Source: a bacterium | Lineage (GTDB): Bacteria > Pseudomonadota > Alphaproteobacteria > Rickettsiales > RI-342 | Reading direction: 5' to 3' | DNA length: 56,538 bases | Assembly: GCA_016124905.1 (NCBI GenBank) | Contig: WGMV01000010.1 | Location: 1-56,538, forward strand | In this document: positions 36,803 to 42,179 of the stretch, one piece after another | Numbering within the stretch: position 1 is the stretch's first letter | How the letters are laid out: the number at the start of each line of letters is the position of its first letter | Position numbers and translations under genes: made by a program | Notes under the pieces: model-generated | The model's input: only the letters and a program-made list of their open reading frames with translations | Told to the model about the DNA's origin: nothing | Databases searched by the model: none

Positions 36803-37570
36803 ATGAGTCTTTTATCGCAGGATGTCTGGGAACATCACTTCAAACCCATGTTCAACACCTGGCGCGAGTTCGTGCCGATGGTGGGCGCGGTTCCCTGTTC
36901 CGTGCTGCCGATCAAGGAGGTAACCAAAACCATTGCCGATATGCAGGGGCTTTTTCATCTGGAGGGTGTTCCGCAATCTCTGAATGAGGCGCTGGAAACG
37001 GCGAGCGGGTTTTCAGAGGATCGTTTAAAACAGGCGATTGCCTCGCTTGCCGCGCAATGGGACTATTATTTTCATGCCGCATGTGAAAACCTGCGTGATA
37101 CATGGCTTCAGACCGGGCTTGGCGGGGACATGCCCGAACAGATTACGGAAAGAGCGCAGCGCTTCATTGAGGGTGCTTACGGCGAACCGCTGGTATTCCT
37201 GTTCCTTGGCGCTTTTGCTGAGGCCTGCGGCATTTATCCGGAAGATATTGATGTGGGCGGACTGAGCCTCGCGGATTATATCGCAGAGGAACATGCACGT
37301 TTTGATGATTTCGCCAGTGTATATCATGACGCCCATTTTATTTTTGATACGGATAATCCGGAGCCTTCCCGCATGCAGGCGCGTCGGCGATTTGAACGAA
37401 CGGCAGGTACTTTTACGGAGTTTGAATCCCTGCGAACCGAACGTGACGATATTCTTTTGAGTACATTCGGCGAGGCGGCTTTGAGAAGCCCCGAGCAGAT
37501 ATCCTGCCGCATTACCATCCCTATGGCGCTGGAGCAGGCGCGGGCGGAAGCCCAGCAAAGGTTTGCCTGA
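36803..37570 (+). CDS. Unknown protein, 255 residues
   Basis: I do not recognise this family. The protein is soluble, probably mostly helical, and acidic in its C-terminal half (HFIFDTDNPEPSR, SLRTERDDILL). It has a GGAGGAAGCC-type ribosome site before the ATG at 36803, so translation is credible. A short hydrophobic stretch PLVFLFLGAFAEACGIY is near residue 135 but is too polar at its edges for a membrane helix. It lies between yejF and ssb and has no obvious link with either. Confidence 0.75.
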   Translation: MSLLSQDVWEHHFKPMFNTWREFVPMVGAVPCSVLPIKEVTKTIADMQGLFHLEGVPQSLNEALETASGFSEDRLKQAIASLAAQWDYYFHAACENLRDTWLQTGLGGDMPEQITERAQRFIEGAYGEPLVFLFLGAFAEACGIYPEDIDVGGLSLADYIAEEHARFDDFASVYHDAHFIFDTDNPEPSRMQARRRFERTAGTFTEFESLRTERDDILLSTFGEAALRSPEQISCRITIPMALEQARAEAQQRFA

Positions 37571-38217: not shown

Positions 38218-38550
38218 ATGCTGCGCCTTATCTATGCCACGTTTCCAACCATGGAGGATGCCAAACGCATGGCGCGCATGCTGGTGGAGCGCAAGCTGGC
38301 CGCCTGCGTCAACCTATTGCCGGGGGCTGCGTCCATCTATCGCTGGGAAGGGAAGATGGAAGAGGAGCAGGAGGTGATCATGGTCACCAAAAGCACCGCG
38401 GCCAAGTGGTCGGAGATCGAGACCCTATTTGAGGAGGACCATCCGCATGATGTGCCTGCGCTGGTGTGCGTGTCCACCTATGCGGCCTTGCCGGTGTTTG
38501 CGGATTGGGTGATGCGGGAAACGGAGAGTTTTCCGTCGGATTCGGAGTGA
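38218..38550 (+). CDS. cutA: Divalent-cation tolerance protein CutA
   Basis: CutA is a trimeric ferredoxin-like protein linked to copper and other metal tolerance; its precise role is unclear. The 110-residue protein has the conserved LVERKLAACVNLLPG, SIYRWEGKMEEEQE and HPHDVPALV segments. It has its own space after the ssb terminator and meets the SecA-like gene end to end, with adjacent stops. Confidence 0.94.
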   Translation: MLRLIYATFPTMEDAKRMARMLVERKLAACVNLLPGAASIYRWEGKMEEEQEVIMVTKSTAAKWSEIETLFEEDHPHDVPALVCVSTYAALPVFADWVMRETESFPSDSE

Positions 38551-41145
38551 TTATTTTCCCGTGCTATGCTGCTGGCCATTGGCCTGGCCAGATATGCGCT
38601 GGATGAAATTATCCAGCCCCTCGCCGAAGGCGTGTTCGGCGGCGCGCACAAGCTGGTTGTCATGCTGTTTCAGCTCATCCAGCGACAAGGGCTTTTCCAG
38701 GTGCACGCTCAATACTTCTTCCAAGGGCAGGGGTTGCAGGCCGACCTTGACGGCGATGTCGTTCATGCCGGCCAGCATGCGTTCGCGCCGTTCCAGCCAG
38801 AGGGGTTCCACCTCATGGCCGATATTGCCTTTCAGGTGGTTCAGCACCTCACGGTAGTTGCCCTGTTTATGCTGGGCGATGGTTTCCTGGAAGTGGTGAT
38901 CCATCACGCGGCGGGCTTTGTCGTCAAACTGGTCCCATTCCGCCGTGGCGGCATTGGCGAAGGCGTAAAAGATTTTATAGCCACGTTCGATCTGTTTGCT
39001 TTTTTCCTCAGCATTGCCACGCACCCGCTGGAACACGCCGAGAGATGCCTGCAACAATGGCAGGCCGACTTTTTCAAAAATATCCACGATCAGCCGTTCG
39101 CGATTGAAGGCGAGCGAAGCCAGAAAGCCCGGCGCGCCGCTGAGGGCATCCCTGGCCAGCCCCTTGAATTCGACATTTTTATTGAGGATGTCGATGTTGT
39201 TTTTAAGCCGTTCATACACCAGGCTTTGGAAGGCCTGCACGAAAGTGAGGAATTCCTGCTGGTAACGCTGCATGACATCGGCTTCGAAATCCTGCTTGAA
39301 GCGCTGGAGCGAGTCGCTCTCGATGCGGTGGTTCTGATAGCCTTCGATGAGCTGATCGGCGATATCGGGCGTGGGGGTGGAGGAAAGGCCCAGCCTGTCG
39401 CCATTGACGATCATCTGCGAGGAGCCCGGCGCGCCTTGCCTTCCTGCACGGCCGCGCAGCTGCCATTGCACGCGCCCGGAAGCGGGCAGCAGGGCGGGTA
39501 TGACATGGAGGCCGCCCGCGTCCAGCACCTCCCTGGTCGGTTTGATGTCGATGCCACGACCGCCAAGGATGGTGGTAAGGGTGATGGCGCCGGGTTTGCC
39601 TGCCTCGGCAATAACCGAGCTTTCCTGCTCAGGCGTGAGGCCGTCGAGCCGTTTCACATGGTCCATGCCCTGCTGGGCGAGATGGGCTGTAAAGCGGTTG
39701 ACATCGTCGATCGATTCCAGCGCCACCAGCGAGGGGCGGCCCTGACGGGCCATTTCCACCAGCTGATCGGTGAGGGTGGAGAAGAAGCCTGTTTCACCGC
39801 CCTGGGTGATGAGGGTCGGCAGGTCTTGCCGTTTGCTGATGTTGTGCGGGGGAATGAACACCGGGGCGAGGTGAAAACGCGCGTGCATTTCCTCCAACTC
39901 CACCCGGTTGCCGGCGGTGCCGGTCATGCTGTTGAAATCCGCATATTGCCGCACGAACTGGGCCAGCGTCATGGAGGGAGCGGCGGTGCCTTCCTCCTCC
40001 ACCGGGAAGCCAAGCCGCGCATGCAGGAACTGGTGAACGCCCTGCGACCAGCGAGAGGATTGTTTCAACTCGCCGCTTTTATCCTTGTCCACCACCACAG
40101 CCTGATAGGCGGGGCGGCCGGGCTTGCTGAAGGCCGGGCTGGGCTGCACCACATAGTCGCGGTCTTCTTCCAGCTGGCCGGCGCGATGGGCGGAGTTCAG
40201 CCATTCCATCAGCAGGGAATCATCCCAGCCCGCAATGGTTTCCCGCTGCTCGGGGGATTCGTTCAGCAGCCATTGGCGGGCTTTCTGGGCCCATGCCTCG
40301 TTCGCTTCTGCCGAGGCGGGGAAGCGTTCGATGAAATGATTGAGGCTGTAATAGACCCAGGCGATGTCGCTTTCCCGGGCGCTGCTGGTGGAGATGCGGT
40401 AGCTGCTCAGGCTGTCCATCAGAGCGTAATCGGCCTCGTCCAGCAATAATGAATCGTATGGACGAAAGCCACGTGAGGGCTGGCCGTAATATTGTTCCAG
40501 CAGGCTGTCGAACACGCCACGGTCGATCGGGGCGTAGATCACATCGCCCGCATAGCCCGCACGGCGGCGGTTCTGGTCATGTTCATCGTCGCCGGGCGGG
40601 ATGCTGGCCCGCAGCCCCAGATCGTTGAACATGCTGTTGAAGAACTGCGCGCCTTCCTCGGAGAGGTAATGGCTGGTGGTCATGACATCCACCTTATGAC
40701 CGCCTGCCGCTTTTAACCCAGCGAGCAGGGCGAAGATAAGGGTCTTGCCTTCGCCGGTTTTGACCTCGGCCAGCACGCCTTCCTTGCTCTGGATGTGCCA
40801 GAGGGCGGTGAGCATCTGTTCGGCATTGGCATAGATGGGGCGAGGGCGGTCGGCTGTTTTGCGGAAAATCCATTCACGCGAGATGGCGAGCCAGGCGATC
40901 TGCAGGCCTTCCTGTCCGGGATCGGCCCGCATTTTCGTCATGATTTCCCCGGCGGAGCGTTTCAGCTCGGCATCGCTGGCCTTGGCGCAGAATTGCTCCA
41001 TGTTGGACAGGGTGTTCCAGCCGGTTGCCAGTTTCGTGTAGGCTTGTTCCGGCAGCATCTCCCGACCGGGGCCCGCGCGCAGGCGGCCGATGCGCTCGGC
41101 AATCGGCATGTCGTCTGGCGGTGGGGTCGGGCGTTTGGTGCTCAT
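38551..41145 (-). CDS. Divergent SecA-like ATPase
   Basis: The 864-residue protein keeps the SecA helicase motifs in order: Walker A KTGEGKT (129-135), DEAD at 236-239 (SecA usually has DEVD), MTGTAGN (407-413), GGRGIDIK (528-535) and QLRGRAGRQGAPGSS (562-576). The last 280 residues do not show the SecA C-terminal zinc motif or an obvious scaffold domain match; they are mainly helical. It is therefore not the housekeeping SecA but a paralogue of unknown job, perhaps translocating or unfolding a special substrate. No signal or membrane segment is seen. It lies alone between cutA (end to end) and miaA (60 bases). The start has no good ribosome site. Confidence 0.9.
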   Translation of the reverse strand: MSTKRPTPPPDDMPIAERIGRLRAGPGREMLPEQAYTKLATGWNTLSNMEQFCAKASDAELKRSAGEIMTKMRADPGQEGLQIAWLAISREWIFRKTADRPRPIYANAEQMLTALWHIQSKEGVLAEVKTGEGKTLIFALLAGLKAAGGHKVDVMTTSHYLSEEGAQFFNSMFNDLGLRASIPPGDDEHDQNRRRAGYAGDVIYAPIDRGVFDSLLEQYYGQPSRGFRPYDSLLLDEADYALMDSLSSYRISTSSARESDIAWVYYSLNHFIERFPASAEANEAWAQKARQWLLNESPEQRETIAGWDDSLLMEWLNSAHRAGQLEEDRDYVVQPSPAFSKPGRPAYQAVVVDKDKSGELKQSSRWSQGVHQFLHARLGFPVEEEGTAAPSMTLAQFVRQYADFNSMTGTAGNRVELEEMHARFHLAPVFIPPHNISKRQDLPTLITQGGETGFFSTLTDQLVEMARQGRPSLVALESIDDVNRFTAHLAQQGMDHVKRLDGLTPEQESSVIAEAGKPGAITLTTILGGRGIDIKPTREVLDAGGLHVIPALLPASGRVQWQLRGRAGRQGAPGSSQMIVNGDRLGLSSTPTPDIADQLIEGYQNHRIESDSLQRFKQDFEADVMQRYQQEFLTFVQAFQSLVYERLKNNIDILNKNVEFKGLARDALSGAPGFLASLAFNRERLIVDIFEKVGLPLLQASLGVFQRVRGNAEEKSKQIERGYKIFYAFANAATAEWDQFDDKARRVMDHHFQETIAQHKQGNYREVLNHLKGNIGHEVEPLWLERRERMLAGMNDIAVKVGLQPLPLEEVLSVHLEKPLSLDELKQHDNQLVRAAEHAFGEGLDNFIQRISGQANGQQHSTGK

Positions 41146-41205: not shown

Positions 41206-42129
41206 TTAATTTTTTAATGACTCCGCGCCTTCACGCACGGTTTCCCAGGCGATTTCGGGCGAAAGCCAGGTGATTTCCTCAATCTGGTTGCGCAGCCAGG
41301 TCAATTGGCGCTTGGCGTAACGCCGGGTGTTGGTCTGGGTGTCGGTAATGGCGGCCTCCAGGGGCAGCTCCCCGGCCAGATGGGCGGTAAATTCCCTCAC
41401 GCCCTGGCCTTTCATCACCGGCAGATGGCCGGAAAGGCCACGTTTCATCAGGTGTTTCACCTCTTCCAGGGCGCCGTCGCGCACCATGTCATGCACCCGG
41501 TCATCGATGCTTTTGTACAGTTTCGGCCGAAGCGGCATGAGGGCATAGGCCAGGATTGTGGCCTCCGGAAAGGGAAGGGCCGTGTTTTTTTGCCATATGC
41601 GGATGGACTGGCCGGTCAGTTCCAGCATTTCCCACGCGCGCATGAGGCGCTGAGGGTTCTGGGTGTCGATGGTGCCTTCCAGCAGCGGGTCCCGTTTGAG
41701 CAGGGTTTCGGCAAAGGCGGGCAGCCCTATCCGTTCCAGCAGGGCATAGCCCTTTTGGCGGAGTTCCATTGGCGCGGCGGGCATTTCGGCCATGCCATGC
41801 ATCAGGGCCTTGATGTAAAGCCCCGTGCCGCCGGTGACGATGGGCAGCACGCCCTGTGCCCAGCAGGCTTCCAGCACATGGGTGAGTTCGCGCAGCCAGT
41901 CGCCGGTGGAGTAATTGGCAGCGCCGTCGATATGGCCGTAGAGGTGGTGGGGTACGAGGGCGGTGTCGCGTTCCGGCGGGCGGGCGGAAAGCACGCGCAG
42001 ATCCTTGTAGACCTGCTGGCTGTCGGCATTAATGACCGCACCGCGATACCCCCCCGCCACGGCCAGCGCGAGGGCGGATTTTCCGCTCGCGGTCGGGCCG
42101 GTGAGGATGAGGATGGGGTTTTTGGCCAT
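41206..42129 (-). CDS. miaA: tRNA dimethylallyltransferase
   Basis: MiaA adds a dimethylallyl group to A37 of tRNAs that read codons starting with U. The 307-residue protein has the P-loop GPTASGKS near residue 11, NADSQQVYKDL, a YSTGDWLREL region and QLTWLRNQ near the C-terminus. I use the ATG at 42129, which starts MAKNPILILTGPTASGKS; the longer frame from 42177 runs up to the start of serB and has no support. Confidence 0.95.
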   Translation of the reverse strand: MAKNPILILTGPTASGKSALALAVAGGYRGAVINADSQQVYKDLRVLSARPPERDTALVPHHLYGHIDGAANYSTGDWLRELTHVLEACWAQGVLPIVTGGTGLYIKALMHGMAEMPAAPMELRQKGYALLERIGLPAFAETLLKRDPLLEGTIDTQNPQRLMRAWEMLELTGQSIRIWQKNTALPFPEATILAYALMPLRPKLYKSIDDRVHDMVRDGALEEVKHLMKRGLSGHLPVMKGQGVREFTAHLAGELPLEAAITDTQTNTRRYAKRQLTWLRNQIEEITWLSPEIAWETVREGAESLKN

Positions 42130-42179
42130 TGCCGGAAGGATGCCGATATGGTTAATCACCCTATCCCATAGGATCACTC

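What the first reader, a model, noticed from the sequence alone, without database searches (positions are those of the whole stretch)
38551..41145. A second, divergent SecA-like ATPase of unknown function
All helicase motifs of SecA are kept in order (KTGEGKT, DEAD, MTGTA, GGRGIDIK, QLRGRAGRQGAPGSS), but the usual C-terminal zinc-binding tail is absent and the second half shows no clear SecA scaffold. The gene is isolated between cutA and miaA, without translocon partners. It is probably a paralogue with a special substrate or a different job, such as unfolding or extraction from membranes. This is the best candidate in the window for an undescribed system.
Basis: partly seen in the sequence, partly recalled or inferred. 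Interest (0 to 1): 0.72.

Follow-up and report, generated by a model that had tools for sequence, protein, structure and literature searches.

The report
Stand-alone orphan SecA-like motor protein
Beside its normal protein-export motor SecA, this bacterium carries a second, very divergent SecA-like ATPase that kept the motor but lost the parts that dock on the export channel; its nearest kin are motor domains buried in giant, function-unknown proteins of host-associated bacteria such as Rickettsiales.

Summary
Window 38551-41145 (-) encodes an intact 864-aa protein with all SecA motor motifs, no zinc tail and no detectable SecA scaffold or wing. The genome has a separate canonical secA (924-codon frame, Cys-rich tail), so this is a real paralogue. 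It is not a canonical SecA, a SecA2, or the SecA-like ATPase found beside PqqD/M50-HlyD genes: it fails every curated cut-off, and trees place it outside all of these. A leave-out profile test (301 bits against 196) and shared derived motifs tie it to the 'SecA-like domain' family inside giant proteins of Rickettsiales, Megaera and Legionella. It is the only intact stand-alone version in 263 order genomes and branches at the base of that family, on a long branch. A T4SS with duplicated virB4 and several virB6 indicates Rickettsiales; genome size and G+C suggest a basal, perhaps free-living lineage. I think it is an ATP-driven polypeptide motor uncoupled from SecYEG. Whether it works inside the cell or is secreted is open; no function is known to me for any family member. 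Verdict: a new, unusual variant of a known but unexplained kind, one gene and not a system.

The parts
38551..41145 (-). Stand-alone SecA-like ATPase, 864 aa
   Evidence: ORF; Pfam SecA_DEAD and P-loop_SecA above cut-offs
40924..41034 (-). N-terminal helices (aa 38-74) that align with the SecA N-terminus (INxxE...LSDxELKxxTxEF)
   Evidence: alignment A1; aa 33-74 helical, block mean pLDDT 74-95
39907..41040 (-). NBD1 with Walker A TGEGKT (aa 130-135), DEAD (236-239) and MTGTA (407-411), interrupted by a segment at the PPXD position (about aa 246-350) of canonical length but unlike sequence
   Evidence: SecA_DEAD match at these coordinates; motif table and DEAD-to-GxHQ spacing of 133 against 124-153 in translocases
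39427..39792 (-). NBD2 (about aa 452-573) with GGRGIDIK and QLRGRAGRQG
   Evidence: P-loop_SecA match; alignment A1; VIA-align to SecA up to aa 607
38554..39432 (-). C-terminal region (aa 572-864), predicted all-helical, no detectable SecA scaffold, wing or zinc domain
   Evidence: hhalign no better than shuffles; AF2 of aa 586-864 alone, mean pLDDT 62, helical; best structural match Z 9.0, not significant for a helical bundle
41206..42177 (-). miaA, same strand, 60 bp upstream
   Evidence: ORF; MiaA homologues found in 24 of 28 genomes searched
38218..38550 (+). cutA, convergent; its stop codon abuts the stop codon of the SecA-like gene

Best explanation
It is an orphan SecA-family ATPase that is no longer a Sec translocase subunit. 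It is the stand-alone, deepest-branching relative found here of the SecA-like domains embedded in giant proteins of Rickettsiales and other host-associated bacteria. It most likely uses the two-lobed SecA motor, with a helical insert at the position of the preprotein clamp, to grip and thread or unfold a polypeptide with ATP. Its own helical C-terminal region would choose the partner or site of action instead of SecYEG. Shown here: intact motor motifs; loss of detectable scaffold, wing and zinc regions; a canonical SecA elsewhere in the genome; affinity to the SecA-like domain family. Inferred: ATPase activity, a polypeptide substrate, and independence from SecYEG. Open: whether it works in the bacterial cytosol or is delivered by the T4SS that the genome encodes.
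For: Motor motifs intact and AF2 core mostly at pLDDT 70-95 with VIA Z 37 to SecA structures. The profile of 22 SecA-like giant domains, built without the window, scores it 301 bits against 196 for the canonical profile; all 22 leave-one-out members show the same sign, and all SecA2, PqqD/M50-HlyD, plasmid and canonical SecAs show the opposite. Features shared with the giant domains against the translocases: extra residue in VDxxx[ST]G with loss of the TGR arginine, HQFL for HQAL, loss of EARTPLIISG, TGTxG with a longer loop, [FL]Px[SN]xRV for ERHESRRID, each with some exceptions. Trees: all translocases form a 100/100 clade that excludes it; grouping with canonical SecA rejected, p 0.001. No HSD/HWD similarity while SecA2 controls score 97-99.9%. 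Canonical SecA present. T4SS with two VirB4 and several VirB6.
Against: Overall identity is only 19-30% to everything, and the window is the longest or one of the longest branches in every tree. It sits at the base of the giant-domain group, on the path towards the translocases, so long-branch effects are not excluded. By raw pairwise identity it is as close to E. coli SecA (28-30%). No orthologue was found, so conservation of function cannot be tested. The AF2 alignment is mostly canonical SecA, which biases the model. No activity or substrate of any member of the family was found in the papers read.
Confidence: 0.55

Rival explanations
1. T4SS effector: the protein is delivered through the genome's type IV secretion system into rival bacteria or a eukaryotic host, as suspected for its giant relatives, and works as an ATPase there.
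For: One relative sits in a giant protein with ankyrin and TPR repeats, one Megaera relative has a weak, sub-threshold match to a RickCE-like catalytic domain, and SecA domains occur in the eukaryotic association module of phage WO (PMC5062602). The genome encodes VirB4 twice and at least four VirB6. Basal Rickettsiales are proposed to use this T4SS against other microbes (PMC9352585, PMC11077975).
Against: No fused repeat or toxin domain, no recognisable signal, unremarkable C-terminus, native G+C and codon-position pattern, and a place beside housekeeping genes.
Confidence: 0.2
2. Accessory SecA (SecA2-like): it still drives SecYEG but for a special set of substrates.
For: Motor and N-terminal helices of SecA kept; a clamp-position insert of canonical length. 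NCBIfam SecA2 models hit at 147-201 bits.
Against: All SecA2 cut-offs missed by a factor of four to seven; no scaffold or wing detectable, whereas true SecA2 proteins keep them; no secY2/asp or substrate genes next to it; trees separate it from SecA2.
Confidence: 0.12
3. Decaying duplicate of SecA without a function.
For: No orthologue found in any of the genomes sampled; very long branch.
Against: 864 codons open, every ATPase motif intact, G+C at codon positions like the neighbours. A drifting copy would hardly share derived motifs with the giant-protein family.
Confidence: 0.07
4. Nucleic-acid helicase rather than a protein motor.
For: The motor fold also resembles DEAD-box helicases (Z about 22); weak PADLOC match to DpdF (17.6 bits).
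Against: SecA structures match far better (Z 37 against 23) and the best sequence profiles are SecA-specific.
Confidence: 0.05

Closest known systems
SecA-like domain of giant proteins of Rickettsiales and other host-associated bacteria (Megaera WPX99843, wBol1_1091/1092 and phage WO EAM SecA, Amoebophilus Aasi_1144/1610, Legionella adelaidensis WP_058461170)
   Same: SecA motor without canonical scaffold, wing or zinc parts; shared derived motifs; same profile preference. The Wolbachia wBol1 and Amoebophilus members are taken from the papers and were not compared here.
   Different: Those compared here are domains inside large proteins, up to 5225 aa; this one is a stand-alone 864-aa protein with its own helical C-terminus, and it branches outside them.
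Canonical SecA (preprotein translocase ATPase)
   Same: NBD1, NBD2, clamp-position insert, N-terminal helices, all ATPase motifs
   Different: No detectable HSD/two-helix finger, HWD or zinc CTL; 191 and 209 bits against cut-offs of 800 and 814; the genome has another, canonical SecA
SecA2 (accessory Sec ATPase of Gram-positives)
   Same: Second SecA in the genome, no zinc tail
   Different: SecA2 keeps scaffold and wing and groups with the translocases; here no accessory Sec partners
SecA-like ATPase next to PqqD/M50 peptidase and HlyD genes (Methylosinus, Rhodobacteraceae; also Rhizobium)
   Same: Shortened SecA with motor, lacking most of the C-terminal half
   Different: Those group with the translocases; the window has no such partners; joining them is rejected (AU p 0.008)

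Membership tests
Canonical SecA (TIGR00963 / NF009538) | score above the curated equivalog cut-off | tested here: not met
   191 of 800 and 209 of 814 bits; the genome's own SecA scores 1143 and 1307
Canonical SecA (TIGR00963 / NF009538) | ATPase motifs I to VI of NBD1/NBD2 | tested here: met
   TGEGKT, DEAD, MTGTA, GGRGIDIK, QLRGRAGRQG
Canonical SecA (TIGR00963 / NF009538) | helical scaffold/two-helix finger and wing | tested here: not met
   hhalign probability 0.6%, same as shuffles; SecA2 controls 97-99.9%
Canonical SecA (TIGR00963 / NF009538) | docking on SecYEG | not testable with these tools
   needs binding or complementation experiments
SecA2 | score above the SecA2 cut-offs | tested here: not met
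   201 of 930, 183 of 1085, 172 of 725, 147 of 1100 bits
SecA2 | accessory Sec partners or substrate genes beside it | tested here: not met
   neighbours read as cutA, ssb, miaA and serB
PqqD/M50-HlyD-associated SecA-like ATPase | clade membership and HlyD, PqqD/M50 neighbours | tested here: not met
   AU p 0.008; no such genes near the window gene; examples
SecA-like domain family of giant proteins | prefers the family profile over the SecA profile | tested here: met
   301 against 196 bits, window left out of the profile
SecA-like domain family of giant proteins | shared derived motifs (VDxxx[ST]G, HQFL, TGTxG, [FL]Px[SN]xRV, lost EARTPL) | tested here: met
   motif table
SecA-like domain family of giant proteins | common branch apart from the translocases | tested here: inconclusive
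   window plus giants split from the translocases with support 99-100 in three trees, but the window is basal and long-branched
SecA-like domain family of giant proteins | embedded in a giant multidomain protein (usual, not defining for the domain) | tested here: not met
   stand-alone 864 aa; other hits of near full length in the order lie in frames of 1026-4441 aa
SecA-like domain family of giant proteins | delivery into another cell | not testable with these tools
   no member has been tested experimentally, as far as the papers read here show

The most novel reading that the evidence does not exclude
The protein represents a so far unnamed, stand-alone SecA-derived motor of early Rickettsiales, working without SecYEG, from which the SecA-like domains of giant host-directed proteins arose; it would be the form of the family before, or outside, giant-protein fusion.
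Probability: 0.25. Interest if true: 0.7.

Novelty: new variant of a known kind. Interest (0 to 1): 0.45.

Why it matters
SecA-like domains recur in giant proteins of Wolbachia phages, Rickettsiales, Legionella and Amoebophilus, and I found no known activity for any of them. Giants of thousands of residues are hard to purify. A 97-kDa stand-alone relative with an intact motor would be a practical protein for asking what this motor family moves, and whether a protein-export motor can work away from its channel. If its basal place holds, it also bears on how Rickettsiales turned an export motor into parts of host-interaction proteins.

Tried and rejected
Orthologue searches: C-terminal 269 aa in 263 order genomes, full length at E below 1e-44 in 385 class genomes and 398 phylum genomes, genome contigs and viral contigs: none; the two contig scans need exact 8-mers and miss distant relatives. 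Third SecA_DEAD hit of the genome (G000:C30): below cut-off and read as RecG from its sequence and its place beside an Mfd-like frame, by eye. Phage-collection hits: low-identity matches to SecA in records that mostly look like chromosomal pieces. Defence or phage gene: PADLOC 17.6 bits only, PHROG of unknown function. C-terminal fold: best matches bacterial dynamin and BAR-type bundles, Z 9.0 at most, below the level trusted for helical bundles, so no claim. A conserved partner gene: the serB-miaA pair is conserved in five relatives, but nothing SecA-like lies beside it. G606 in the class search proved to be a canonical SecA. 16S search found none in the assembly. The TLC search found none, but its control was silent, so absence is not shown. 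A scan for named relatives with the genome's own SecA gave mixed proteobacteria, mostly alphaproteobacteria, at 54-65% and no close name.

Full report
What is there. The minus strand of 38551-41145 encodes an intact 864-aa protein. Pfam finds SecA_DEAD (117.8 bits) and P-loop_SecA (80.8 bits), both well over their cut-offs, and the best solved relatives are SecA structures (E 2.5e-49). The NCBIfam SecA and SecA2 models all hit, at 147 to 226 bits, against cut-offs of 725 to 1493. G+C and its spread over codon positions match the neighbouring genes, so it does not look recently acquired.

Not the only SecA. The genome (2.36 Mb, 47 contigs) has a canonical SecA at G000:C8 that scores 1307 bits against an equivalog cut-off of 814 and ends in the CxC...CH zinc tail. 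The third weak hit, at C30, looks like RecG.

Anatomy. The N-terminal helices align with those of SecA; Walker A, DEAD, TGTA and motifs V and VI are intact, and the distance from DEAD to GxHQ is 133 residues, within the translocase range of 124-153, so a clamp-sized insert is present though its sequence is not conserved. AlphaFold2, fed with a 20-row alignment of mostly canonical SecA (a bias), gives a motor mostly at pLDDT 70-95 up to about residue 607, with weaker stretches around the clamp-position insert, and VIA-align places it on SecA structures with Z up to 37. The rest (aa 572-864) shows no similarity to the SecA scaffold and wing: hhalign 0.6%, equal to shuffles, with SecA2 controls at 97 and 99.9%. 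Folded alone, aa 586-864 give a helical bundle of low to middling confidence with no trusted structural match. There is a single cysteine in the protein.

Relationship. Searching relatives turned up, besides canonical SecAs, a second class: SecA-like domains inside very long proteins. A Megaera plasmid carries one annotated 'SecA-like domain protein' of 5225 aa, and a Legionella adelaidensis replicon another of 2513 aa. In one relative (G032, 3781-codon frame) the domain lies between ankyrin and TPR arrays. A profile of the class separates from canonical SecA in the order: 26 of 263 genomes carry it at 318 bits or more, while canonical SecAs reach 295 at most (the window and six others were in that profile). 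Outside the order, 2 of about 380 alphaproteobacterial genomes have it, both small (1.4 and 1.7 Mb). With the window left out of the profile it scores 301 bits against 196 for the canonical profile; every giant domain shows the same sign, every SecA2, PqqD/M50-HlyD, plasmid or canonical SecA the opposite. A set of derived motifs goes the same way. In three trees the translocases form one group that excludes the window (support 99-100), and joining it to canonical SecA is rejected (p 0.001). The window sits at the base of the giant-domain group on a long branch, so its exact place is uncertain.

Host genome. Two VirB4 proteins, with three VirB6 in a row behind one of them and one more VirB6 beside the other, are typical of the Rickettsiales rvh T4SS (duplication described in PMC9352585). 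Size and a window G+C near 58% resemble the basal, possibly free-living families described there. Eight ankyrin matches were found; no ATP/ADP translocase was found, but that search had no working control.

Neighbourhood. The gene follows miaA by 60 bp on the same strand and ends against cutA, convergent. In five relatives the serB-miaA pair is kept, with nothing SecA-like beside it. There is thus no sign of a multi-gene system.

What it does. Inferred: an ATP-driven polypeptide motor that no longer docks on SecYEG. The literature read here reports such domains (PMC3639933, PMC5062602, PMC3482391) but gives no activity; wBol1_1092 is under purifying selection (PMC3639933), so at least some members are likely functional. 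Delivery by the T4SS is possible and untested. Novelty: a new, stand-alone, deep variant of a known but unexplained kind.

Noticed in passing
G000:C46 (L068:9575-16550) and G000:C8 (L069:3513-7861): T4SS with two VirB4, three tandem VirB6 behind one of them and a further VirB6 beside the other, as in the rvh system of Rickettsiales.
   Followed up: partly
L051 (Candidatus Megaera polyxenophila plasmid CP113870): Two neighbouring giant SecA-like domain proteins; the 5225-aa one has a weak, sub-threshold match to a RickCE-like catalytic domain near its C-terminus.
   Followed up: partly
L056, L058, L065, L053 (plasmids of Methylosinus, Rhodobacteraceae, Rhizobium): Recurrent neighbourhood of HlyD-type adaptor, PqqD/M50 protein and a short SecA-like ATPase (with a TolC gene in Methylosinus), annotated inconsistently (even 'prepilin peptidase'); might be a SecA-driven peptide exporter.
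   Followed up: no
L057 (P. amygdali pMPPla107) and L059 (Variovorax plasmid): Plasmid-borne extra SecA proteins outside the canonical clade; the Pseudomonas one lies a few genes from a type IV coupling-protein gene.
   Followed up: no
G220:C1 (L127): Three equal-scoring copies of a truncated 467-aa SecA-like frame in one genome, perhaps carried by a repeated mobile element.
   Followed up: no
window 36803-37570: 255-aa protein next to the oligopeptide ABC transporter genes with no NCBIfam match.
   Followed up: no
phage records OR846918, OR848568 and others: Records named Listeria phage carry what looks like bacterial secA, so they are probably chromosomal contamination.
   Followed up: no
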